DNA from: Euzebyales bacterium
GTDB lineage: Bacteria; Actinomycetota; Nitriliruptoria; Euzebyales; JAHELV01
Assembly (NCBI GenBank): GCA_035461305.1
Contig: DATHVN010000127.1
Location: 1-41,145 of the forward strand
Reading direction: 5' to 3'
Length of the DNA: 41,145 nucleotides
Positions 30,283-41,051 of the stretch are shown in pieces. Each line of letters begins with the position of its first letter. The first letter of the stretch is position 1. A program made the translations under genes and the position numbers. Below the pieces are notes generated by a model that saw only the letters and a list, made by a program, of their open reading frames with translations, did no database searches and was not told the origin of the DNA.

Positions 30283-30849
30283 TCAGTACGGGACATCGAC
30301 AGCGATCGGCCTGGGCCGACCGGTTGCGATGTCGAGCACGTCCGGCAGCCAGGGGGTGAAATCGCGGGGCGATTCGGCGCAGGCGGCGCGCACCGCGTCG
30401 AGGGCGTTCAGCGCGGTGGCCTCGATGTCGGCGCGGTCGAACCGGTCGCGGTCGAGCGCCGCGGTGTCCACCCCGCCGACGAGCACGACGTCGTACTCGT
30501 GCTCGACGAGGCCGGACGCCGGATCACGCGCCTCGTACCAGAAGGCACCCCGTACCTCGAGCGGACCCGGATCGAACCCGAGCTCCTCGCGGGTGCGCCG
30601 GCGCCCGGCCGCACGCAGCGGCTCACCCGGGCGCGGGTGACTGCAACATGTGTTCGACCAGCGGCCAGCGAAGTGGTACTTGCTCGCCGCGCGGCGTTGC
30701 AGGAGCACACGTCCGTCGGAGGCGAACAGCACGACCGAGAACGCCAGGTGCCGTGTCGCGCGCTGGTGCGCGGCCAGCTTGTCCATGGACCCGATGACCG
30801 CCGCATCGGCGCGGAGCAGCACGACGGCGTCGTCCACGTCGTCGGACAC
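30283..30849 (-). CDS. idi: isopentenyl-diphosphate delta-isomerase, type 1
   Basis: Nudix-fold enzyme converting isopentenyl to dimethylallyl diphosphate for isoprenoid synthesis, 188 residues. The active-site cysteine lies in the segment SNTCCSHPRPGE (family NTCCSHP). Metal-binding histidines are in DKLAAHQRATRHLAFSVVLF, the Nudix-like helix is RRRTREELGF, and the essential Glu pair is in VEHEYDVVLVG. The C-terminus FTPWLPDVLDIATG is as in short actinobacterial enzymes. GTG 30849 is the start; it lies 2 bases after the stop of the prfC remnant, and the upstream in-frame sequence ([11 protein letters not shown]) is the end of prfC, not of this gene. Intact. Confidence 0.92.
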   Translation of the reverse strand: MSDDVDDAVVLLRADAAVIGSMDKLAAHQRATRHLAFSVVLFASDGRVLLQRRAASKYHFAGRWSNTCCSHPRPGEPLRAAGRRRTREELGFDPGPLEVRGAFWYEARDPASGLVEHEYDVVLVGGVDTAALDRDRFDRADIEATALNALDAVRAACAESPRDFTPWLPDVLDIATGRPRPIAVDVPY

Positions 30850-30851
30850 GG

Positions 30852-31582
30852 TCAGGCCACGGCCGCGCGGCTCGCGCCGGCACGTGCCCCGAGCTCGCCC
30901 AAGCTCGATGTCGGGGTGGTCGCGCACCCTCCGCAGCACGTGCTCAGACTCGAACAGCGCGAGCACCGCGGTGGTCCTCGACCAGCTGCAGGCGGCGAGC
31001 CGTGCGCAGCGCCGGGGCGTCGGCGGCGTCGACCCGTCGGGCCAGCGTCCAGGGAGCCGGCGCGAGTGCGATCTGGTCGGAGGTCTGGTCGAGCACCTCC
31101 AGCGGGGGCAGCCCAGGATGATCGCACTTGTTGACGAACGTCACGATCGGCAGGCCGCGATCGCGGCAGACCCCGAACAGCTTCAGCGTCTGTGGCTCCG
31201 GCCCTCGTGCGGCATCGAGCACCATGACAGCGGCGTCTGCGGCACACAGCGTGCGATAGGTGTCCTCACTGAAGTCGGCGTGGCCGGGCGTGTCGAGCAG
31301 GTTGAAGCACCACCCGCCGTTGGTGAAGTGCAGTGCGGTCGACGAGATCGAGATGCCCCGCTGCTGCTCGAGCTCCATCCAGTCACTGGTCGTCGTCCGC
31401 GCCTGCCTGCGAGACCTGACGGCGCCGGCCTCCTGGACGGCGCCGGCGAACAGCAGGAACTTCTCGGTGAGGGTGGTCTTGCCCGCGTCGGGGTGGCTGA
31501 TGATGGCGAACGTGCGCCGACGCGCGGCGGCAGCACGCACATCGGCGTCCGTCACCTGGGCACTGGACACGGAGGAGCTCAC
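30852..31582 (-). pseudogene. prfC: peptide chain release factor 3, middle deleted and frameshifted
   Basis: RF3 recycles RF1/RF2 after termination using GTP. The first about 165 residues are an excellent RF3 G domain: [20 protein letters not shown] (G1), [32 protein letters not shown] (G3), IVTFVNKCD (G4) and [17 protein letters not shown]. It then switches directly to [28 protein letters not shown] and, after one frameshift near 30968, [20 protein letters not shown] and a stop at 30852, which is the extreme C-terminus of RF3. About 330 residues (domains II and most of III) are absent from the roughly 530 expected. The Lys in the G1-associated segment is present, but the protein could not bind the ribosome as RF3 does. 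prfC is dispensable in many bacteria, so loss is tolerable. Confidence 0.9.
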
Positions 31583-32987: not shown

Positions 32988-34586
32988 TCACTCGCGGACG
33001 AACGGGTGCACCGGGTGGCGCCCGGTGGACGTCACGGACCTGACCGCGTCGATCATGACGGGGTGGAACGCGTACTCGTCGACGTCGTCGGGGACCTCGA
33101 ACTCGTCGATGTCCGCCAGCGAGTAGAACCGGTGGACCCCCGGCTGCTCGAGGTAGCCCAGCAGCCCGTTCTGCCACAGCACCGACGGCACGTCCGTGTG
33201 CCCGTCGAACACCTCGTCGCCGGCGTTGCGCAGTGTCATCAGGTCCTTGAAGCCAAAGCGGTCGACGCCGACCAGCCCGATGATGTCGCGCAGCTCCCGC
33301 TGCACCGTCTGCGCGTACTCCTGGCTGCTGATGTAGCCCTCGGCGTAGCCGTACAGCGCGGCGTTGCCAGGCATCATGTCGGCCGCGATCTGGTTGGCGC
33401 ACTGGGCGAGCTGCGAGTTGCCGAAGCGCTTGGCCGATTGCGACACGATCCTGCGCAGGGCGGCATCGGGCAGCCGGTCATGCCCCATCGCGCGTTGACG
33501 AAGGATCTCCTGGCACAGCGCGTTGCCCAGCGACACCACATCACGCGGGATCAGCCGGGTGTGGCGCAGCAGGTAGTCGATCGCCTGCTCGTCGATGCCA
33601 CGGCGCTCGTTGTGCACCGTCGTGGTACCCAGCCAGTTGTGCAGTTCGTCCTCCGACGCCCCGGGTGCCATCTGGTAGGACGGCGACAAGCGCCGCAGCT
33701 TGTGGCGCAGCAGCACGTCGATGGAGCCATGTCCCCAGCTCAGGACGCGGATGTGGGGCTCCCCGTGGTACCGCGGGGCGTGCTCGTCGCGGTAGACCGA
33801 GGAGAGCACGATGTCGCGTATGCACGTCACGATGTGCAGGCGGCCCCCGAGCCGTGGGTCGCGCAGCATGCGCATCGTCTCGAAGAACAGGCCTTTCTGG
33901 CAGCGCAGCCAGTACATCGGCGCGCTCGAGAACTCCTCGTCGACCGCGTCGATGTAGAAGAAGATCGGTGGGGTCTCGGCCAGCAACTCGGCCAGCAGGT
34001 CCTCGAGGTCGTCCCAGCGCTGGTCGTCCATGAGGCGCGTGAGCTCGTACCTCGAGTTGCACCGGCCGACGATCGCCCGCAGCTCGCTGTAGACCGCCCG
34101 CGGTCGCCGCACGTCGTCGAGCAGGTCGAGGTAGCGCCGCTTCAGCAGGCGCTCGTCGTCCTCGGACAGGTACGGCAGCAGCGCGGGGTCGGCGAGCAGG
34201 TACGACGCCAGCGAGCGCACGATGGCGCACCGCCACAGCTGCATCCACTTCTCGGTCAGGTACGCGGCGGGGAACCACTGGCACGCCTTGACGATGACCT
34301 CGGTCGACGGGACGCTCTGCTGGATGTGGCAGGCGAACACCGAGTCCTGCCGGTGCTGGTGGTTGTGGAGCCGACGCAGGTAGACGGTCTTGCCCGCTCC
34401 CATGCGTCCGACGATGACGCGCGCCGTCGCGTCGCTCGCGCGCGTCGCCAACGCGCCGAAGGCCGGGTTCCCGCGGAAGTCGACGAAGCCGTCGAGCAGG
34501 TCGTCGAGATCGGCGCGCGACCCGTCGGGGTTGCCGAACGGGCCCACAGGGTCCGTTCGCGGCGCGGCCTGCGACTCCTGCACCAT
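32988..34586 (-). CDS. orphan P-loop NTPase of unknown function
   Basis: 532-residue protein. Walker A is GRMGAGKT (60-67), with the strand before it ATARVIVGRMGAGKTVYLRRL starting about residue 53. A Walker B-like hydrophobic strand ends in acidic residues, IFFYIDAVDEE (about 208-218). HIVTCIRDIVLSSVYRD (about 255) resembles the sensor strand of STAND/KAP-type NTPases, and SWGHGSIDVLLRHKLRRL the family helix. The C-terminal 230 residues are helical and carry no recognised domain, transmembrane segment or HTH. The N-terminus GPFGNPDGSRADLDDLLDGF recalls P-loop proteins that act as sensors in defence or signalling. ATG 34586 follows GGAGGG by about 6 bases. It is monocistronic, intact, and sits between pseudogenes and a long non-coding gap. 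Function not assigned. Confidence 0.8.
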   Translation of the reverse strand: MVQESQAAPRTDPVGPFGNPDGSRADLDDLLDGFVDFRGNPAFGALATRASDATARVIVGRMGAGKTVYLRRLHNHQHRQDSVFACHIQQSVPSTEVIVKACQWFPAAYLTEKWMQLWRCAIVRSLASYLLADPALLPYLSEDDERLLKRRYLDLLDDVRRPRAVYSELRAIVGRCNSRYELTRLMDDQRWDDLEDLLAELLAETPPIFFYIDAVDEEFSSAPMYWLRCQKGLFFETMRMLRDPRLGGRLHIVTCIRDIVLSSVYRDEHAPRYHGEPHIRVLSWGHGSIDVLLRHKLRRLSPSYQMAPGASEDELHNWLGTTTVHNERRGIDEQAIDYLLRHTRLIPRDVVSLGNALCQEILRQRAMGHDRLPDAALRRIVSQSAKRFGNSQLAQCANQIAADMMPGNAALYGYAEGYISSQEYAQTVQRELRDIIGLVGVDRFGFKDLMTLRNAGDEVFDGHTDVPSVLWQNGLLGYLEQPGVHRFYSLADIDEFEVPDDVDEYAFHPVMIDAVRSVTSTGRHPVHPFVRE

Positions 34587-34767
34587 GCGGGCCCTCCGCT
34601 GTGGCCTCGCCACCGCGTCAGCGCGTCACCGCCGACGTCGTACCACCACAACCCTATGGGACGATCCCGCCGCTGACGAGGCCCACACCGGGCCACGCAG
34701 GACGGTCGCGGGTGCAGCCGCCACGAGGCGACCCGCTGCCCCGCGGCACGCCAGCGGATCTTCGGGG

Positions 34768-34797
34768 TTGACCTGCGCGACACGACGCTCCTACCAT
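34768..34797 (+). promoter_or_regulatory. predicted promoter in the 34587-35115 gap
   Basis: TTGACC (34768-34773), an 18-base spacer and TACCAT (34792-34797) form a reasonable -35/-10 pair reading towards the redox operon. Transcription from about 34804 would give a leader of about 310 bases before the ATG at 35116. The gap upstream, 34587-34767, shows no gene. Confidence 0.45.
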
Positions 34798-34803
34798 CCC
34801 CAC

Positions 34804-35089
34804 CGGACTCAGCAGCCCGACCGATCGGCGAGGTGGGTTCGGCACCCCGGTCCCGACGGGGTCCAACGGCATGCGCGGGTCGTGGGTAGAGAGCTGAGCC
34901 TGACGGTAGGTGGGTGCCCATGGCCGGCATCACGGCGTTGCGGACGGCGGGGACGACATCCGCGCCGCATCAGACGCATGACGCGGTGACCGATGCACCG
35001 CGGTACCCGCCCGGTTCCCCGCCAATGACGATCGCGACATGTCACCTGCTCGCGATCACAACCAGACAGGCCCGCCTCGGCGGGCCTTT
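34804..35089 (+). ncRNA. candidate structured leader or small RNA (unassigned)
   Basis: This non-coding stretch between a predicted promoter and a strong terminator is about 285 bases, with no believable reading frame. It ends in two consecutive hairpins: GATCGCGA/TCGCGATC (35030-35037 with 35050-35057) and the terminator at 35068-35089. It could be an attenuating leader of the redox operon or an independent small RNA. No known riboswitch class, tmRNA, RNase P or SRP RNA was recognised. Confidence 0.35.
35068..35089 (+). terminator. intrinsic terminator hairpin just upstream of a start codon
   Basis: AGGCCCGCC-TCGG-style hairpin: AGGCCCGCC pairs with GGCGGGCCT across a 2-base loop region and is followed by TTTC. 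It lies 27 bases upstream of ATG 35116 and just before the AAGGAGG ribosome-binding site, so read-through must occur, or another start be used, for the operon to be expressed. Confidence 0.75.
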
Positions 35090-35115
35090 CCTGCTGTGTG
35101 CGCAAGGAGGCGACC

Positions 35116-36168
35116 ATGGTGAGGTTCAGCTACGTCCAGGTCCCCGACTATCCGTTGGCCGACTGCATCGAGAACATCCGGGCGGCTGACGAGCTCGGGT
35201 TCTACGCCTGCTACAGCGTCGACGAGACCTGGCACAAGGACATGTGGCTGCTGTTCGCGGCCGCGGCAGACAAGACGAGCACGATCCGGATGGGCCCGAA
35301 CGTCACGCACGTGATCCTGCGGGAACCGACGCTCATCGCCCAGCAGCTGGCGACCCTCGACGAGCTGACCAACGGCCGCGCCGAGGCCGTCGTCAGCTTC
35401 GGCAACCTCGGGCTGCTGCACCAGTACGGCATCGACTGGAGGCAGATGAAGCCGTTGTCGCGCCTGCGCGAGGGCATGCACGTCCTCCGGACCTTCCTCG
35501 ACGACGGCACGATCACATTCGACGGTGAGTTCTTCAGCTACTCGGGGCTGTACACGTTCGCGCGTCCGGTCCAGGAGCGGGTGCCGCTGAAGCTGGGTGG
35601 GATGGGCGGACCGAAGTCGTTCGAGCTGGCCGGCGAGATCGCCGACGGGCTGCACCACGCGCTGGGCTACTCGCGCGAGAACTACGACTACGTCGCCGAG
35701 CACTTCCGCGCCGGCGCACAGCAGGCCGGTCGGGACGCCGACGACCTTGATCTCGGGGCGTGGTTGTGCATGTCGGTCGGCGAGGACTCGCAGGCCGCGA
35801 AGGACGCCGCGCGCATCATGGTGGCCTTCTACATCTCCTCCATGCCGGAGAGCCAGCTGCAGCGCCACGGTCTGGAGGCGTCCGAGTTGCAGCCGATCGT
35901 CGATGCGCTGGGCGAGGGCAAGGTCGACAAGGCGATCGAGATGACCAGCCCCGAGCTGGCCGCGACCCTGTCGGTCGCCGGCACCCCCGAGGAGTGCGTC
36001 GAGCAGCTGCAGGCCGACATCCTGCCGACGGGCGTCAACCACGTGATCGCCGCGCTGACGGACCCCGCGCTCGTGGAGCTGTTCACGGGCAGGCAGATCA
36101 CGGACGTGCCCGACACCAAGGGACAGCTGCAGCTGATCGCCGACCGGATGATGCCAGCCCTGGGCTAG
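35116..36168 (+). CDS. LLM-class (probably F420-dependent) oxidoreductase
   Basis: 350-residue luciferase-like TIM barrel of the group that includes F420-dependent methylene-tetrahydromethanopterin reductase-like proteins. Features are VRFSYVQVPDYPLADCIENI (N-terminal strand), IRAADELGFYACYSVDETWH, TIRMGPNVTHVILREPTLIA (about 54-73), and TLDELTNGRAEAVVSFGNLG, which matches the conserved GR-x-x-x-G cofactor loop region. KLGGMGGPKSFELAGEIADG (about 162-181) is the phosphate site with the Mer-like GGxGP motif. ATG 35116 has AAGGAGG at good spacing; an in-frame ATG at 35098 lies before the ribosome-binding site and is rejected. It is the first gene of the operon with the Fe-S and FAD proteins, suggesting oxidation of a common substrate series. 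Cofactor identity is inference. Confidence 0.88.
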   Translation: MVRFSYVQVPDYPLADCIENIRAADELGFYACYSVDETWHKDMWLLFAAAADKTSTIRMGPNVTHVILREPTLIAQQLATLDELTNGRAEAVVSFGNLGLLHQYGIDWRQMKPLSRLREGMHVLRTFLDDGTITFDGEFFSYSGLYTFARPVQERVPLKLGGMGGPKSFELAGEIADGLHHALGYSRENYDYVAEHFRAGAQQAGRDADDLDLGAWLCMSVGEDSQAAKDAARIMVAFYISSMPESQLQRHGLEASELQPIVDALGEGKVDKAIEMTSPELAATLSVAGTPEECVEQLQADILPTGVNHVIAALTDPALVELFTGRQITDVPDTKGQLQLIADRMMPALG

Positions 36169-36274
36169 TGGGACGTCCGTCGGACCCGGCAGGCACGGGT
36201 GGAGCGCCCAACTCCGGCGACGCGCCGTCCGACCGCCCGTGCCGCCGGCGACGACCGCGTGAGAGGAGCAGGAT

Positions 36275-37543
36275 GTGACCGACGTCGACCCCGTCACCGA
36301 GACCTTCGTCGAGCAGTGGCGCGACCATGCCTACAGCTGCTTCAGCTCGGGGCACAAGTTCTGCCGCAACGTGTGCCCGGTGATGGGTGTCACGCAGGAC
36401 GAGAACCACTCGCCAACCGCGTTCCACGCCAACGTCGTCGCGATGGAGCAGGGACTGGTCTCACTCGACGACGTCGCACGCGACTACGTCCACTGCACGC
36501 AGTGCGGGGCATGTGAGACGCGCTGCCCCAACACGCTGATGGCCGGGGACTTCTACCGGCACCGCACCCGCACGGTCGACCTGGTCAAGGCCATGCGGGC
36601 GCTGGCCGTCGACAACGGCATCGAGCAGCCGGGCTGGAAGCGGTGGGTCGACGAGACCGTCCGGGTCCGCAGCGAGCCGGTGCTGGACGTGCCGGTCGAG
36701 CAGGAACGGGTGGCCGACTGGGCCGACGGGCTGGACCTGCCGATCGGCGGCGAGACGATCCTGTTCGTCGACTGCGAGGCGGCCTTCTACCGCACGTCGC
36801 TGCCGCGGGCGGTCGCCAGGATCCTCCAGGCCGGCGGCGTCGCCTTCGGGCTGATGCGCGAACAGTGGTGCTGCGGCGGACCGTCCCGCGAGATGGGCTA
36901 CGTGGACACCGCGCGGGAGTTCGCCCGGCACAACCTCACCGACTGGCGCGAGAGCGGCGTGCGCCGCGTGATCGCGCTGGACCCGCACGACTACGTCAGC
37001 TTCACCGAGGACTACGCCGAGTACTTCGGTGACGACTACGACATCGAGATCGTCTTCATCACCGAACTGGTCGCCGAGCTCGTCCGCGACGGCCGACTGC
37101 AGCTGACCAACCCGATCGAGGCGGTGGTGACCTACCACGACGCGTGCCGGCTGAACAAGCGCCGGGGGATCTTCGAGTCGCCGCGGGAGATCCTGCGCGC
37201 CATCCCGGGCGTGGAGTTCCGTGACGTCGACCACGTGACCCAGTGGTCCTACTGCTCGGGAGCGGGGGGTGGGCTGGCCGTCGAGCGCCCGGACCTCACC
37301 GCGGCCATCAGCAACCAGCGGTTGGATCGCGCGGCCGCCCTGGAGGTCGACACGCTGGTGTCCGCCTGCGTGTGGTCCGAGCGTCCGCTCAGCAAGGCCG
37401 GCGCAGACCGCGGCATCGAGGTCCGCGACCTCATGGAGATGGTCGCCGAGGCGGCGGGCGTCAGCGACGACCCCCCACGTCGCCCCGGAACGGCTCCCGG
37501 GCCCGCGGGTGACCGGTCCGCTCAGGACGGAGGTCCGGCATGA
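36275..37543 (+). CDS. (Fe-S)-binding oxidoreductase, GlcF/HdrD-like (CCG domains)
   Basis: 422-residue protein with an N-terminal ferredoxin-like region and two cysteine-rich (CCG) domains, as in glycolate oxidase GlcF, GlpC and HdrD. The second cluster motif is complete: C74-x2-C77-x2-C80-x3-C84P (HCTQCGACETRCP). The first is irregular: C22, C30 and C34 (SCFSSGHKFCRNVCP) without the usual four-cysteine spacing. CCG-type motifs are EQWCCGGPSREMG (about 203-215), YHDACRLNKRRG and YCSGAGGGLAVERPD. It would pass electrons from the FAD partner towards the quinone pool or another acceptor. GTG 36275 follows GAGAGGAGCAGGAT. The stop overlaps the next start by four bases, so a complex with the FAD protein is very likely. 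Confidence 0.9.
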   Translation: MTDVDPVTETFVEQWRDHAYSCFSSGHKFCRNVCPVMGVTQDENHSPTAFHANVVAMEQGLVSLDDVARDYVHCTQCGACETRCPNTLMAGDFYRHRTRTVDLVKAMRALAVDNGIEQPGWKRWVDETVRVRSEPVLDVPVEQERVADWADGLDLPIGGETILFVDCEAAFYRTSLPRAVARILQAGGVAFGLMREQWCCGGPSREMGYVDTAREFARHNLTDWRESGVRRVIALDPHDYVSFTEDYAEYFGDDYDIEIVFITELVAELVRDGRLQLTNPIEAVVTYHDACRLNKRRGIFESPREILRAIPGVEFRDVDHVTQWSYCSGAGGGLAVERPDLTAAISNQRLDRAAALEVDTLVSACVWSERPLSKAGADRGIEVRDLMEMVAEAAGVSDDPPRRPGTAPGPAGDRSAQDGGPA

Positions 37544-39057
37544 CAGGGGTGCTGCCGGTCGGCATCGCCGACCACGTGATCGACGAGCTCCTCGCGATCT
37601 GCGGCGACGACGGGGTGCGGGTGGACCGTCCCGCACGGGTGAACCGCACGCGTGTGCCGGCGCCCTTCCGGGTCCACCGCTGGGCCGAGCACGTCCCCGA
37701 TGTGGTCGTGCTGCCGCGATCGACCGAGCAGACCGCCGAAGTCGTGCGGCTGGCCAACAGGGAACGGATCCCGGTCGTGCCACGCGCGGCAGGGACCGGC
37801 CTGACCGATGGCGCGACCCCGCTGCGGCACGGCATCCTGCTCGACGTCAAGCGGATGAACCAGATCCGCGACATCGACCTGGTCGACCGCACCGTCACGG
37901 TGGGGCCGGGCATCAGCATGCTCAAGCTCAACGAGGTGCTGCGTCCACACGGCGTGATCTATCCCGACGACCCCGCGAGCTACCCGTGCTCGATGGTCGG
38001 TGGACGCATCGGCACGGGCGGCTGGTCACTGATCGGCGCCCGCTACGGCCACACCCGCGACCTCGTCATGTCGATGACCGTCGTCCTGCCGACCGGCGAC
38101 GTCGTGCAGGTCGGCGAGGGCGGCGGGCGCAAGCTGCGGAAGGCATCGACGGGGTTCAGCCTCAAGCAGCTGTTCATGGGCCACGAGGGCACGCTCGGCG
38201 TGGTGACCGAGGCCACCCTCGAACTGGTCCCCCGCCCGGAGGTCGAGTTCGCCGCCTTCTTCGGCTATCCCGACTACCGGACGGCGTACGCGTCGACCGG
38301 TGCGCTGGCGAAGTCCGGGTTCGCCACGCTGGCCGGGGTCGTGCTGTTCGACGAGTGGAAGCTTGCGTACCTGCGCCGCGACGACGAGGCCTACATCGAG
38401 CAGCCAGAGTCGCTCAGGGCGGTCGTGGCGCTGGCCGCGTACGGCAACCGTGACGAGGTGACGCCTGCGGCGAGGGCGCTGATGCGCATCGGCCGCGAGA
38501 CGGGCGGCGACTACCTCGGTGATGAGGTGTCCCAGGGCGACTGGGCGGCACGCCACGACCGCTACGCGATCCCGCTGCACGGCCGCGCGCCCGACGGCCA
38601 GGTGGTGCCGATGTCGTGGCACTGCGAGGACGCCGCACTCAACTACAGCGTGCTGCCGCAGGTGCGCGAGGAGTGGCACGCCATCGTCGCGCGGCACCGC
38701 GAGCGGTACGGCATCTTCGACGACTGGGGCATGTTCGCCTACACCAACGGCGCCTACAAGCCGTGGGGCGACTACCTGGTCGAGATCGACGTCGGCATCT
38801 GGGAGCAGCGGCTCGACGACGAGGCGTGGGAGGGCTGGGTCAACTGCAAGCGGGAGATCACCGAGGTCACACTGAAGTACGGCGGGTCGATCAGCGCGTG
38901 CCACGGCGCCAGCCGCGAGGGTGACGTGGAGTACGTCCCCACCGAGCTGGGCGGCGCCTTCGACGTCATGAAGCAGATCAAGCGGACGCTGGACCCCAAC
39001 AACGTCATGAACCCTGGCAAGTACCTCCTGGACCAGGCCTACGAGGAGACACCATGA
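37540..39057 (+). CDS. FAD-linked oxidase, GlcD/D-lactate dehydrogenase type
   Basis: 505-residue flavoprotein of the vanillyl-alcohol oxidase fold. The FAD_binding_4 domain (about 40-225) has VVLPRSTEQTAEVVRLANRE, the pyrophosphate loop VPRAAGTGLTDGATPLRHGI (about 86-105), VTVGPGISMLKLNEVLRPHG and GGRIGTGGWSLIGARYGHTR. FMGHEGTLGVVTEATLELVP closes the domain. The C-terminal cap continues to FDVMKQIKRTLDPNNVMNPG, the standard end of GlcD-type oxidases. The pair with the Fe-S protein suggests oxidation of a 2-hydroxy acid or similar alcohol; the substrate is not readable. The ATGA overlap couples it to the Fe-S gene, and its own stop overlaps the start of the 79-residue protein by four bases. 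Confidence 0.92.
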   Translation: MTGVLPVGIADHVIDELLAICGDDGVRVDRPARVNRTRVPAPFRVHRWAEHVPDVVVLPRSTEQTAEVVRLANRERIPVVPRAAGTGLTDGATPLRHGILLDVKRMNQIRDIDLVDRTVTVGPGISMLKLNEVLRPHGVIYPDDPASYPCSMVGGRIGTGGWSLIGARYGHTRDLVMSMTVVLPTGDVVQVGEGGGRKLRKASTGFSLKQLFMGHEGTLGVVTEATLELVPRPEVEFAAFFGYPDYRTAYASTGALAKSGFATLAGVVLFDEWKLAYLRRDDEAYIEQPESLRAVVALAAYGNRDEVTPAARALMRIGRETGGDYLGDEVSQGDWAARHDRYAIPLHGRAPDGQVVPMSWHCEDAALNYSVLPQVREEWHAIVARHRERYGIFDDWGMFAYTNGAYKPWGDYLVEIDVGIWEQRLDDEAWEGWVNCKREITEVTLKYGGSISACHGASREGDVEYVPTELGGAFDVMKQIKRTLDPNNVMNPGKYLLDQAYEETP

Positions 39058-39293
39058 TCGGCTTCCTGCTGTCGCGCCAGGAGCCACCCGAGCCGCGACG
39101 GATCAAGCACGACGTGGTGATGCGCTTCGACGACGTCTACGAGGTCGACCCGACGCTGATGCAGACGATCACCCAGGACGACATGCCGGCGTGGGACACG
39201 CATCGCATCGTCGCCCACCGCTGGGATCACCTGGACTGGATGCACGACCACTTCGCCGACGCGGTGCTGTCGGCGGAGGACCTCGAGGAGTAG
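39054..39293 (+). CDS. 79-aa acidic protein coupled to the FAD oxidase gene, function unknown
   Basis: I do not recognise this family. The ATG overlaps the FAD oxidase stop (ATGA). The protein starts MIGFLLSRQEPPEPRRIKHD, is acidic and aromatic in the middle (RFDDVYEVDPTLMQTITQDD) and ends with a His/Asp/Trp-rich helix (HRIVAHRWDHLDWMHDHFAD) and AVLSAEDLEE. Seven histidines and many carboxylates in the C-terminal half could bind metal, and the size suits a small subunit or maturation factor of the oxidase complex. There is no signal peptide, cysteine pair or membrane segment. Codon use looks like its neighbours. Translational coupling is the main evidence that it is real and works with the two upstream proteins. 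Confidence 0.8.
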   Translation: MIGFLLSRQEPPEPRRIKHDVVMRFDDVYEVDPTLMQTITQDDMPAWDTHRIVAHRWDHLDWMHDHFADAVLSAEDLEE

Positions 39294-39312: not shown

Positions 39313-39879
39313 TCACAGGGTGGCGTGTGTCGGTCGGGCGAGCACCTCGCGGACCATCGGCTCGAAGAACGTCAGCGGCAGCCAGTCGTAGTCGGGGTCG
39401 AACGAGCACTGGTCGTAGTCGGCACAGAAGTCGACCGTCGCCTGATAGTAGGGGTGGTCGCGGTACCGCTCCCTGGCGTGCGGGTCGCCCCCGGTGTGGT
39501 GGAAGTAGTACACGCCCTGGAACAGCCCGTGGTGCCGGACGATCCAGTGGTTGCGCTCCGACACGTAGGGCCGCAGCACGGCGGCGGCGACCTCCGAGTG
39601 GTTGGCCGGGCCGAGTACGTCGCCGATATCGTGCAGCAGGACGCACACCACGGTCTCGGTGTCCTCCCCCGCCCGGTGGGCCCGGGTCGCGGCCTGCAGC
39701 GAGTGCTCGAGACGGGTCACCCTGTAGCCGGCGGGCAGGTCCATGGCGCGCAGCCAGTCGAGCACGCGGTCGGCGAAGGCGTCCAGGTCGCGCTGCTCGA
39801 TCTGGGCCAGCAGCGCATACTCCTCGGCCGTCCCGTCCTGCATCCGCGTGAAGGCGACCGTCCGCCGCCGCGCGCTCAC
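39313..39879 (-). CDS. HD-domain protein, PhnZ/TmpB-like di-iron oxygenase candidate
   Basis: 188-residue HD-superfamily protein. Candidate metal ligands are H59 in RLEHSLQ, H83-D84 in LLHDIGD, H94 in ANHSE, H116/H117 in VRHHGLF, and an acidic residue in FCADYDQCSFDPDYD (D154, D156, D161 or D163). This matches the PhnZ/TmpB group of mixed-valent di-iron oxygenases that split C-P bonds, including the LEHSLQ and NHSE spacing. PhnZ has Y24 and E27 seven to ten residues before LEH; here the region is LPAGYRVTRLEH, which has a Tyr but not the same Tyr/Glu pair, so the substrate may differ. A plain HD phosphohydrolase is the alternative. GTG 39879 overlaps the stop of the oxygenase gene by four bases; ATG at residue 13 is another possible start. 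Confidence 0.75.
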   Translation of the reverse strand: MSARRRTVAFTRMQDGTAEEYALLAQIEQRDLDAFADRVLDWLRAMDLPAGYRVTRLEHSLQAATRAHRAGEDTETVVCVLLHDIGDVLGPANHSEVAAAVLRPYVSERNHWIVRHHGLFQGVYYFHHTGGDPHARERYRDHPYYQATVDFCADYDQCSFDPDYDWLPLTFFEPMVREVLARPTHATL

Positions 39880-41051
39880 GAGGCGTCCGCCATCGTCGCC
39901 GGCAACGGGCGGTGCTCGCCGCGCAGCACCCTCCGGCGGGCCATCAGGTCGTCCCACTCCATGTAGACGTCCTGAAGGTGCCGGGCCCCGCTCGTGGGGT
40001 CGAAGGGCAGCCGGCCGTGCAACACCCGGTGCCCGTGCAACGTGAGCAGATCGCCGTCGACCGCCTTGAACACCACGCGGTAGTCGGGGCCGTCGATCAT
40101 CGCGCCGAGCCGGCGGTACGCGGCGTAGAACGGCTCGACGACGTCGGCCGCCACGTCGAGCGGGCACGCCAGCTGGTTGGAGAACCTGAACGTCGTGACC
40201 CGGCCCTCAGGGTCGAGCTGGACCATCGGCGCGACCGCGTACGTGTCCTCCGACGCGCTGAACAGCTGGTACGGCACCGGCACCGACGCCAGGACCGCGA
40301 ACGCGTCGGGGTGGTCGCGGCGCAGGTCGCCGAGCACCCGCCAGCCGTCAACGACGACGCTCTCGCCGCCGTCCGCCCGGTTGACCAGGAAGTGGATGAG
40401 CTGGACGCTCGGCGGCCACGCGTAGCTGGGCATGTCGGTGTGCGGCTTGAGCTCGAGCGGCGTGTGGGCGACGTTGTAGCCGTCGGGGTCGTGGCGGACG
40501 TTGTGGACGCGCTCGAAGGCGACCTCGCGCACGTGGCCGAGCGTCGAGGCGAATCGGGCGGCCTCCCCCGGCACGGTCGGCACGTCCCGCACGATCGCGA
40601 CGCCGACGTCGCGGAGCGCATCGAGGTACGCCAGCTGGCCGGAGACGCCGCCCACCACGTCTGCGTGGGCGAACGCGGGCGGCGTGAAGTCCGCAGCCCA
40701 CAGCACGGGATCGTGGCGCCGCGCCGCGCGGGCCGCGTCGCCGTAGTCGTACCGGACCAGCCAGGCGGCGGTGTAGGCCGACCGGTGCCCGTCGTTCCAC
40801 TCGACGTGCAGGGTGGCGCGGTCATCGAGCCGCGCCCGGGCGGGTGAGACGTCGGCGGCGATGTCTGCCGTGAACAGCTTCCGTTCGGCGGTCTGCTGCA
40901 CCCGACAGCTCCCGCACCAGCAGTTGTCACGCAGCCACACGTAGTGAAAGGTGCGAACGCCGTCCGGCAACTCGACCGTCAGGGTGCGGGGCCCGACCCG
41001 GACCCCGGCCGCAGCAGCCTGCGCCACGGCCGTGGTGGACGTCTGGTCCAT
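39876..41051 (-). CDS. Fe(II)/2-oxoglutarate dioxygenase, gamma-butyrobetaine hydroxylase / TmpA family
   Basis: 391-residue enzyme. The N-terminal DUF971-like zinc domain has C44-x-C46-x2-C49 (DNCWCGSCR), the first three ligands in the gamma-butyrobetaine hydroxylase pattern. The C-terminal TauD-like jelly roll carries the iron triad H204-x-D206 (LKPHTDMPSY) and H345 (HRVLHGR), with R357 or a neighbouring Arg as 2-oxoglutarate anchor. The coherent partner is the HD-domain gene, overlapping by four bases. TmpA, a homologue of gamma-butyrobetaine hydroxylase, hydroxylates 2-(trimethylammonio)ethylphosphonate, and TmpB then cleaves the product; PhnY/PhnZ do the same for 2-aminoethylphosphonate. 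The gene pair therefore points to phosphonate breakdown rather than carnitine synthesis. ATG 41051 has AAGGAGG at good spacing. Confidence 0.85.
   Translation of the reverse strand: MDQTSTTAVAQAAAAGVRVGPRTLTVELPDGVRTFHYVWLRDNCWCGSCRVQQTAERKLFTADIAADVSPARARLDDRATLHVEWNDGHRSAYTAAWLVRYDYGDAARAARRHDPVLWAADFTPPAFAHADVVGGVSGQLAYLDALRDVGVAIVRDVPTVPGEAARFASTLGHVREVAFERVHNVRHDPDGYNVAHTPLELKPHTDMPSYAWPPSVQLIHFLVNRADGGESVVVDGWRVLGDLRRDHPDAFAVLASVPVPYQLFSASEDTYAVAPMVQLDPEGRVTTFRFSNQLACPLDVAADVVEPFYAAYRRLGAMIDGPDYRVVFKAVDGDLLTLHGHRVLHGRLPFDPTSGARHLQDVYMEWDDLMARRRVLRGEHRPLPATMADAS

What the first reader, a model, noticed from the sequence alone, without database searches (positions are those of the whole stretch)
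35116..39293. Four-gene redox operon joining a luciferase-like (F420-type) oxidoreductase to a GlcF/GlcD-like pair
The Fe-S gene, the FAD oxidase gene and the 79-aa gene are linked by four-base overlaps, and the luciferase-like gene lies 106 bases ahead on the same strand. GlcD/GlcF-type complexes normally oxidise 2-hydroxy acids to quinone; an F420-dependent enzyme in the same unit is unusual and suggests two consecutive oxidations of one substrate, or electron transfer involving F420. It converges on the phosphonate-like oxygenase pair, so it could process the product.
Basis: partly seen in the sequence, partly recalled or inferred. Interest (0 to 1): 0.6.

Follow-up and report, generated by a model that had tools for sequence, protein, structure and literature searches.

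The report
Conserved amine-linked flavin–iron–sulfur F420 operon
Four neighbouring bacterial genes, kept together in about 30 mostly actinobacterial genomes, seem to encode an uncharacterised enzyme system that oxidises a nitrogen-containing compound rather than the hydroxy acids its relatives use, together with a dedicated enzyme that probably uses the rare cofactor F420.

Summary
Luciferase-like (LLM), Fe-S, FAD and 79-aa genes lie at 35116-39293, with the stated overlaps and gap. They form a real module: the FAD/Fe-S core occurs in 30 distinct genomes (mostly Actinomycetota, one Chloroflexi MAG, Desulforhopalus singaporensis). The LLM is linked to it in 26, and in 61 relatives LLM and FAD genes occur in exactly the same four genomes.

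The GlcD/GlcF reading is wrong in function. All 20 aligned module FAD proteins lack the HxGDGNxH and EHGxG motifs that carry the Zn/2-hydroxyacid site; 24 of 28 paralogues keep them.

Recurrent neighbours point to amines: aminobutyraldehyde dehydrogenase, GABA transaminase, a succinate-semialdehyde-dehydrogenase-like enzyme, APC or NCS1 permeases. In Desulforhopalus, which has no detected CofD/CofE and no LLM, EtfBA and an EtfD-like membrane Fe-S protein sit there instead.

The LLM models closest to F420-dependent Mer but lacks Mer's catalytic Glu, so it is probably an F420 enzyme for another substrate. The convergent oxygenase pair keeps its own linkage without the module and is probably unrelated.

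Best reading: an uncharacterised amine dehydrogenase (FAD/Fe-S/small subunit) feeding the 4-aminobutyraldehyde/GABA route, with a dedicated F420 partner. Substrate, cofactor and complex are unproven.

The parts
34768..34797 (+). sigma70-like promoter, TTGACC-18-TACCAT
   Evidence: consensus scan, 1 found against 0.2 expected; conserved in the sister species as TTGACC...TAGCAT
34803..35115 (+). about 310-nt leader before the LLM gene, with blocks conserved in the sister species
   Evidence: alignment to L045; no Rfam family; fold z-score -0.7 over 34803-34990; function unknown
35116..36168 (+). luciferase-like (LLM) oxidoreductase, 350 aa, Mer-like, probably F420-dependent
   Evidence: PF00296; best NCBIfam TIGR03555 F420_mer 199.8 bits, below its cut-off of 348.7; model pLDDT 90.7, top Foldseek hits Mer with F420
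36275..37543 (+). Fe-S protein, 422 aa: one CxxCxxCxxxCP cluster site, one atypical C/His site, two degenerate CCG domains
   Evidence: PF02754, PF13183; alignment A4
37540..39057 (+). FAD-binding dehydrogenase subunit, 505 aa, GlcD fold without the Zn/2-hydroxyacid motif
   Evidence: PF01565, PF02913; motif test; model pLDDT 78, top Foldseek hits D-lactate dehydrogenase
39054..39293 (+). 79-aa conserved small protein, no known family, probably a small subunit or assembly factor
39313..39882 (-). HD-domain oxygenase-like protein (PhnZ/TmpB-like), flanking, judged not part of the module
   Evidence: PF01966, TIGR03276 33 bits against cut-off 214.6; kept with the next gene in G086 and G221 without the module
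39876..41051 (-). TauD/gamma-butyrobetaine-hydroxylase-like (TmpA-like) dioxygenase, flanking, judged not part of the module
   Evidence: PF02668, PF06155; TmpA 271.8 bits (cut-off 400) and gamma-butyrobetaine dioxygenase 271.1 bits (cut-off 414.75)

Best explanation
The FAD protein, the Fe-S protein and the 79-aa protein form one soluble or membrane-associated dehydrogenase. It is built on the GlcD/GlcF plan but has been re-tooled to oxidise an amine instead of a 2-hydroxy acid. The FAD subunit takes two electrons from a C-H next to nitrogen (giving an imine or aminoaldehyde), and the Fe-S subunit passes them on one at a time. The product enters the 4-aminobutyraldehyde -> GABA -> succinate semialdehyde route, whose enzymes recur beside the module in several lineages. 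In F420-containing bacteria a dedicated Mer-like LLM does a further hydride step in the same pathway with F420 (on the imine/aminal product or on a companion amine). In Desulforhopalus the LLM is absent, and EtfBA plus an EtfD/DgcB-like membrane Fe-S protein lead the electrons to menaquinone. Shown: conserved linkage, loss of the hydroxyacid motif, recurrent neighbours, F420-type LLM relationship. Inferred: complex formation, amine substrate, direction of the LLM reaction, electron path.
For: Module conserved in 30 genomes, LLM linked in 26. LLM/FAD co-occurrence exact in 61 relatives. 0/20 module FAD proteins have HxGDGNxH or EHGxG against 24/28 paralogues; these carry the Zn site H434, H441, E475 of human D2HGDH (PMC10025160). 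Amine-type neighbours: aminobutyraldehyde dehydrogenase PRK13473 (695-723 bits, cut-off 615) meeting the 79-aa gene's stop codon in the sister species (L045), inside the operon in Prauserella (L068, L071), divergent with GABA transaminase in Kribbella (L049); these ALDHs are 73-75% identical. Microlunatus (L069): GABA transaminase (PRK06058 732 bits, cut-off 639) with an SSADH-like enzyme. APC permease in L044, L068, L069, L071; NCS1 permease in L042 and L072, 63% identical. L072: EtfB, EtfA and a Nitrate_red_gam+CCG protein downstream, resembling EtfD (compare PMC13083937). LLM: Mer is the top sequence and fold match; CofD over the cut-off in 15 of the 18 genomes tested; CofD/CofE not credibly detected in Desulforhopalus, which lacks the LLM.
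Against: More than half of the loci, including the window itself, show no amine gene within the flanks read (for example Asanoa, Solirubrobacter, Phytohabitans). GABA-route enzymes are common, so the neighbour argument rests on about four lineages. No residue-level substrate site was modelled; the FAD model has only medium confidence (pLDDT 78) with a poor stretch at 144-164. Two genomes (G080 with CofD/CofE, and Desulforhopalus) run the module without the LLM. The LLM and Fe-S distance matrices correlate weakly (r=0.19, not significant). The Desulforhopalus Fe-S protein is only 33% identical and has lost CCG cysteines.
Confidence: 0.4

Rival explanations
1. It is a 2-hydroxyacid (glycolate/lactate-like) dehydrogenase of GlcD/GlcF type feeding quinone, with an LLM acting on the same carbon skeleton.
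For: Pfam domains and closest solved folds are D-lactate dehydrogenase/GlcD; Fe-S partner with CCG domains.
Against: Zn/hydroxyacid motifs lost in 20 of 20 members; scores far below the equivalog cut-offs: GlcD 210 against 568, GlcF 55.5 against 333; neighbours concern amines, not organic acids.
Confidence: 0.1
2. F420 is the electron sink: the LLM accepts electrons from the FAD/Fe-S complex (or shares its substrate) to make F420H2, doing the job that EtfBA and the EtfD-like protein do in Desulforhopalus.
For: LLM present where F420 genes are; in Desulforhopalus, without detected CofD/CofE, ETF genes replace it.
Against: LLMs normally bind a substrate together with F420 and no LLM known to me takes electrons from an Fe-S protein; G080 has F420 genes and the module but no LLM; only one ETF-type case seen.
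Confidence: 0.15
3. The system removes N-alkyl groups from a quaternary or N-methyl amine (betaine, carnitine-like): the FAD/Fe-S complex as N-demethylase with an ETF/DgcB-type electron path, the LLM handling the one-carbon or iminium product.
For: DgcB/EtfD-like protein and ETF in L072; PRK13473 ALDHs also score well as betaine-aldehyde dehydrogenases (440 bits); many invariant Trp/Tyr and acidic residues in the FAD subunit; Mer-like LLM works on a methylene-amine (PMC11094777).
Against: No folate-binding domain or one-carbon enzyme seen beside the module in the loci annotated; the LLM lacks Mer's catalytic Glu and the Asp at position D.
Confidence: 0.12
4. The LLM is an FMN-type monooxygenase or does not need F420; its linkage reflects a different chemistry such as oxygenation of the amine.
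For: G070 has the linked LLM (L067/L092) but neither CofD nor CofE was found in a 98%-complete MAG; LLM families include FMN monooxygenases.
Against: G070 does show a CofH-type hit in an open frame of 800 aa, the size of FbiC, so a gap in the MAG is likely; sequence and fold are much closer to F420 enzymes than to FMN ones.
Confidence: 0.15

Closest known systems
GlcD/GlcF glycolate oxidase and D-lactate dehydrogenase (VAO/PCMH-type FAD subunit with CCG Fe-S subunit)
   Same: FAD_binding_4 + FAD-oxidase_C fold (top Foldseek hits are LDHD, TM 0.76/0.83) and an adjacent dicluster-CCG Fe-S subunit
   Different: Zn/2-hydroxyacid motifs HxGDGNxH and EHGxG replaced by WGMFxYT...DYLxEID and ACHG; extra invariant acidic and aromatic residues; 79-aa third protein
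Mer, F420-dependent methylene-tetrahydromethanopterin reductase (8qpl, 1z69)
   Same: closest sequence and structure (TM 0.88/0.93, 2.2 A, 29% identity); small hydrophobic residue (Val/Leu 63) at the non-prolyl cis-peptide backstop, Phe at pterin position B in most members
   Different: catalytic Glu6 is Val/Cys/Gly, Asp96 is an invariant Asn, below the Mer equivalog cut-off; no methanopterin pathway known in these bacteria (own knowledge)
Acetobacterium LctBCD (lactate dehydrogenase-EtfAB, 7qh2)
   Same: GlcD-like flavoprotein that works with EtfAB, as may the Desulforhopalus version (L072)
   Different: lactate enzyme; no Fe-S CCG subunit of this type, no LLM, no 79-aa protein
EtfD/DgcB-type ETF:menaquinone oxidoreductase
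   Same: the L072 downstream gene has Nitrate_red_gam, dicluster and CCG domains and sits after EtfBA
   Different: not found in the actinobacterial loci annotated here; only in the Desulforhopalus version
Putrescine/GABA catabolism (aminobutyraldehyde dehydrogenase, GABA transaminase, SSADH)
   Same: these enzymes are neighbours or members of the operon in several lineages
   Different: known routes start with transaminases, putrescine oxidase or PuuABCD, not with a GlcD/GlcF-like complex plus LLM (own knowledge)
TmpA/TmpB phosphonate oxygenase pair
   Same: the convergent neighbours resemble it
   Different: both below the curated cut-offs and the pair is inherited independently of the module

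Membership tests
GlcD / D-2-hydroxyacid dehydrogenase | FAD_binding_4 and FAD-oxidase_C domains | tested here: met
   PF01565 1.6e-37, PF02913 5.7e-16
GlcD / D-2-hydroxyacid dehydrogenase | HxGDGNxH and EHGxG (Zn and substrate carboxylate site) | tested here: not met
   0 of 20 module proteins, 24 of 28 paralogues; Zn site described in PMC10025160
GlcD / D-2-hydroxyacid dehydrogenase | equivalog score over cut-off | tested here: not met
   TIGR00387 210.4 against 567.9 bits; GlcF NF008434 55.5 against 333
F420-dependent LLM oxidoreductases | luciferase-like TIM barrel, closest to F420 members | tested here: met
   PF00296; Mer/ADF/FGD among the top folds, Mer first by a wide margin
F420-dependent LLM oxidoreductases | host makes F420 | tested here: inconclusive
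   CofD and CofE in G000, CofD in most hosts; G070 has the LLM but only a CofH-type hit
F420-dependent LLM oxidoreductases | binds and uses F420 and not FMN | not testable with these tools
   needs purified protein
Mer (methylene-H4MPT reductase) | catalytic Glu6 and Asp96 of the pterin site | tested here: not met
   position 7 is V/C/G and position 97 is N in every member aligned there (roles in PMC11094777)
Mer (methylene-H4MPT reductase) | equivalog score over cut-off | tested here: not met
   TIGR03555 199.8 against 348.7 bits
Amine dehydrogenase feeding the GABA route | conserved linkage with aminoaldehyde/GABA enzymes and amine-type permeases | tested here: inconclusive
   present in several lineages, but not in the majority of loci
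Amine dehydrogenase feeding the GABA route | amine oxidation activity | not testable with these tools
   needs assay
TmpA/TmpB-linked phosphonate pathway | module and oxygenase pair co-inherited | tested here: not met
   pair without module in G086 and G221; module without pair in G205, G075 and the other loci

The most novel reading that the evidence does not exclude
A previously undescribed amine-oxidising route in which a GlcD-like flavoprotein, re-tooled away from hydroxy acids, works with a Hdr-type Fe-S protein, a new small subunit and a dedicated F420 enzyme, so that electrons of amine catabolism reach F420; in anaerobes without F420 the same core is wired to ETF and menaquinone.
Probability: 0.15. 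Interest if true: 0.75.

Novelty: new variant of a known kind. Interest (0 to 1): 0.5.

Why it matters
Most of the many actinobacterial F420-type LLM enzymes have no known substrate. Here one LLM orthologue group is tied in 26 of 30 genomes to a defined partner enzyme and, in several lineages, to a recognisable pathway, so its substrate can be tested directly. The case also warns against annotating these FAD and Fe-S proteins as glycolate oxidase or D-lactate dehydrogenase, since the catalytic motif is missing. The small protein is a new conserved family.

Tried and rejected
2-hydroxyacid oxidase: rejected on the motif test. Functional link with the convergent oxygenase pair: rejected on co-occurrence. 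LLM as a true methylene-pterin reductase: rejected on missing catalytic residues. Leader as a known riboswitch: no Rfam family, no unusual fold stability. 79-aa protein in Pfam, NCBIfam or PDB: nothing. Search for further FAD homologues in Desulfobacterota: only Desulforhopalus itself among 297 genomes. Plasmid collection with the 79-aa protein: no match. Six full-text searches for this gene combination or pathway gave nothing relevant. LLM absence in Mycolicibacterium agri: cannot be judged because its contig ends just after the FAD gene.
Full report
Observation. The four genes are as described: LLM 35116-36168, Fe-S 36275-37543, FAD 37540-39057, 79-aa 39054-39293, all on the + strand, with two ATGA overlaps and a 106-base gap after the LLM. 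Domains: Bac_luciferase; Fer4_8 + CCG; FAD_binding_4 + FAD-oxidase_C; none for the 79-aa protein.

Conservation. A scan of the genome collection with the FAD protein gave a tight group of orthologues, 55-82% identical to it. The FAD subfamily was also found in genomes related to the window's own, including a sister species at 96% (L045), and the small gene gave more. After removing duplicate records there are 30 distinct genomes: the window organism and its sister species, other relatives of its order and class, Kribbella, Asanoa, Phytohabitans, Prauserella, Microlunatus, Mycolicibacterium agri, Solirubrobacter, several MAGs (one labelled Chloroflexi), and Desulforhopalus singaporensis. tblastn of all four proteins and gene calling show the LLM linked in 26 of 30: upstream on the same strand (window, sister, Kribbella and others), directly downstream (Asanoa, Solirubrobacter, Phytohabitans and others), downstream after a permease or ALDH (Prauserella, Microlunatus, L042), or divergent (L067). 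Order is flexible, linkage is not. The four without a visible link are L044 and L072 (no LLM of this group in the genome), L070 (contig ends; none found in the genome) and L054 (contig cut). Each of the 11 LLM-bearing genomes tested has exactly one LLM at E below 1e-60. Among 61 relatives, LLM and FAD orthologues occur in the same four genomes (two further LLM hits are only 46% identical); Fisher p 1.9e-6, with the caution that genomes are related. Distances of FAD and LLM correlate (r 0.59, 0/5000 permutations), FAD and Fe-S more strongly (0.78), Fe-S and LLM not significantly (0.19).

The FAD protein is not a GlcD-type hydroxyacid oxidase. In human D-2-hydroxyglutarate dehydrogenase Zn is held by H434, H441 and E475 (PMC10025160); in sequence these correspond to HxGDGNxH and EHGxG (the mapping is my own knowledge). 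Of 28 GlcD-like paralogues from this and related genomes 24 have both motifs; of 20 module proteins none has either. The module has WGMFxYT...DYLxEID and ACHG there (AAHG in L073). It has 21 invariant acidic residues and many invariant aromatic ones, which would suit a cationic substrate, though their position at the flavin was not modelled. The AlphaFold model is of medium quality (pLDDT 78) and resembles D-lactate dehydrogenase overall.

The Fe-S protein keeps one full CxxCxxCxxxCP site (C74, C77, C80, C84). Its first site is unusual: C30 and C34 with an invariant His27 where a Cys is expected, and C22 further upstream. The CCG domains are degenerate, with YCSGxG in place of CCGxG in the second. 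The 79-aa protein has few strictly invariant residues (M36, R51, R56, L60, H66), no Cys, and no known relative.

The LLM. Sequence, profile and fold all put it next to Mer, the F420-dependent methylene-tetrahydromethanopterin reductase, with a confident model (pLDDT 90.7) and TM 0.88/0.93. The backstop for F420, a non-prolyl cis peptide before Val62 in Mer (PMC11094777), is retained as Val/Leu63, though the preceding Gly is Asn/Ser/Asp here. Catalytic Glu6 and Asp96 of Mer are Val/Cys/Gly and Asn. So it is probably an F420 enzyme but not a methylene-pterin reductase. CofD and CofE occur in the window genome, and CofD in most hosts. G070 lacks both but has a CofH-type hit in an open frame of 800 aa, suggesting an assembly gap. 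Desulforhopalus has no credible CofD or CofE match; its two CofH_C hits may be menaquinone (futalosine) enzymes (inference). FMN use cannot be excluded.

Neighbours. In the sister species an aminobutyraldehyde dehydrogenase (PRK13473, 707 bits, cut-off 615) begins at the stop codon of the 79-aa gene. Orthologues 73-75% identical lie inside the operon in Prauserella and divergently, with a GABA transaminase, in Kribbella. The window genome has one ALDH at 76% identity elsewhere, beside two class-III aminotransferases; the next best is at 41%. By a rough estimate of one such gene per 4 Mb, about 0.1 would be expected in all the module flanks. Microlunatus has a GABA transaminase with an SSADH-like enzyme. 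APC permeases (four loci) or a 63%-identical NCS1 permease (G075 and Desulforhopalus) also recur, and one MAG has a flavin amine oxidase-like gene upstream (L064). In Desulforhopalus the FAD, Fe-S and small genes are followed by EtfB, EtfA, a Nitrate_red_gam+dicluster+CCG protein, a small membrane protein and the NCS1 permease. That protein resembles EtfD/DgcB; EtfD connects ETF to menaquinone in mycobacteria (PMC13083937).

The convergent oxygenase pair (39313-41051) scores below the TmpA, TmpB and gamma-butyrobetaine dioxygenase cut-offs. It is present, still paired, in G086 and G221 without the module, and absent from G205, G075 and the other module loci. The convergence is local to this genus and gives no support for a shared pathway.

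Mechanism and confidence. Shown: linkage, loss of the hydroxyacid site, F420-type relationship of the LLM, amine-type neighbours in several lineages, ETF genes in Desulforhopalus. Inferred: an amine dehydrogenase complex (about 0.4), an F420-dependent second step by the LLM, electron transfer FAD -> Fe-S -> carrier. Many loci carry no informative neighbours, so the substrate class rests on a minority of lineages. No paper found in the held library describes this combination.

Noticed in passing
window 34768-35115: Promoter-like site and about 310-nt leader before the LLM gene with blocks conserved in the sister species (L045); no Rfam match and no unusual folding energy; could be a regulated leader.
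   Followed up: partly
window 30947-31582 (-): EF-Tu-type GTPase domain only (GTP_EFTU), which reads like the N-terminal part of release factor 3; looks like a remnant, next to a NUDIX gene (30286-30966).
   Followed up: no
window 32988-34613 (-): P-loop ATPase of the Sll1717 family (82.3 bits, cut-off 75), upstream and divergent; also in the sister species at 85%.
   Followed up: no
L072 12559-12834 and L042 7931-8152: Homologous small single-TM proteins beside the NCS1 permease in Desulforhopalus and in G075; no Pfam family; perhaps a permease partner.
   Followed up: partly
L044 11635-12294, L068 7042-7803, L069 4175-4864: Related proteins (Cache/PDC-sensor-like in L069) beside GntR regulators next to the module; possible ligand sensors for its substrate.
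   Followed up: no
L111 7312-9023, L112 7030-8705: The BBOX/TmpA-like and HD-oxygenase-like pair occurs as a linked unit in relatives without the module; possibly an undescribed oxygenase pair.
   Followed up: partly
L043 780-3095: Fused APH kinase and class-III aminotransferase (PRK06148-like) directly after the 79-aa gene in G070.
   Followed up: no
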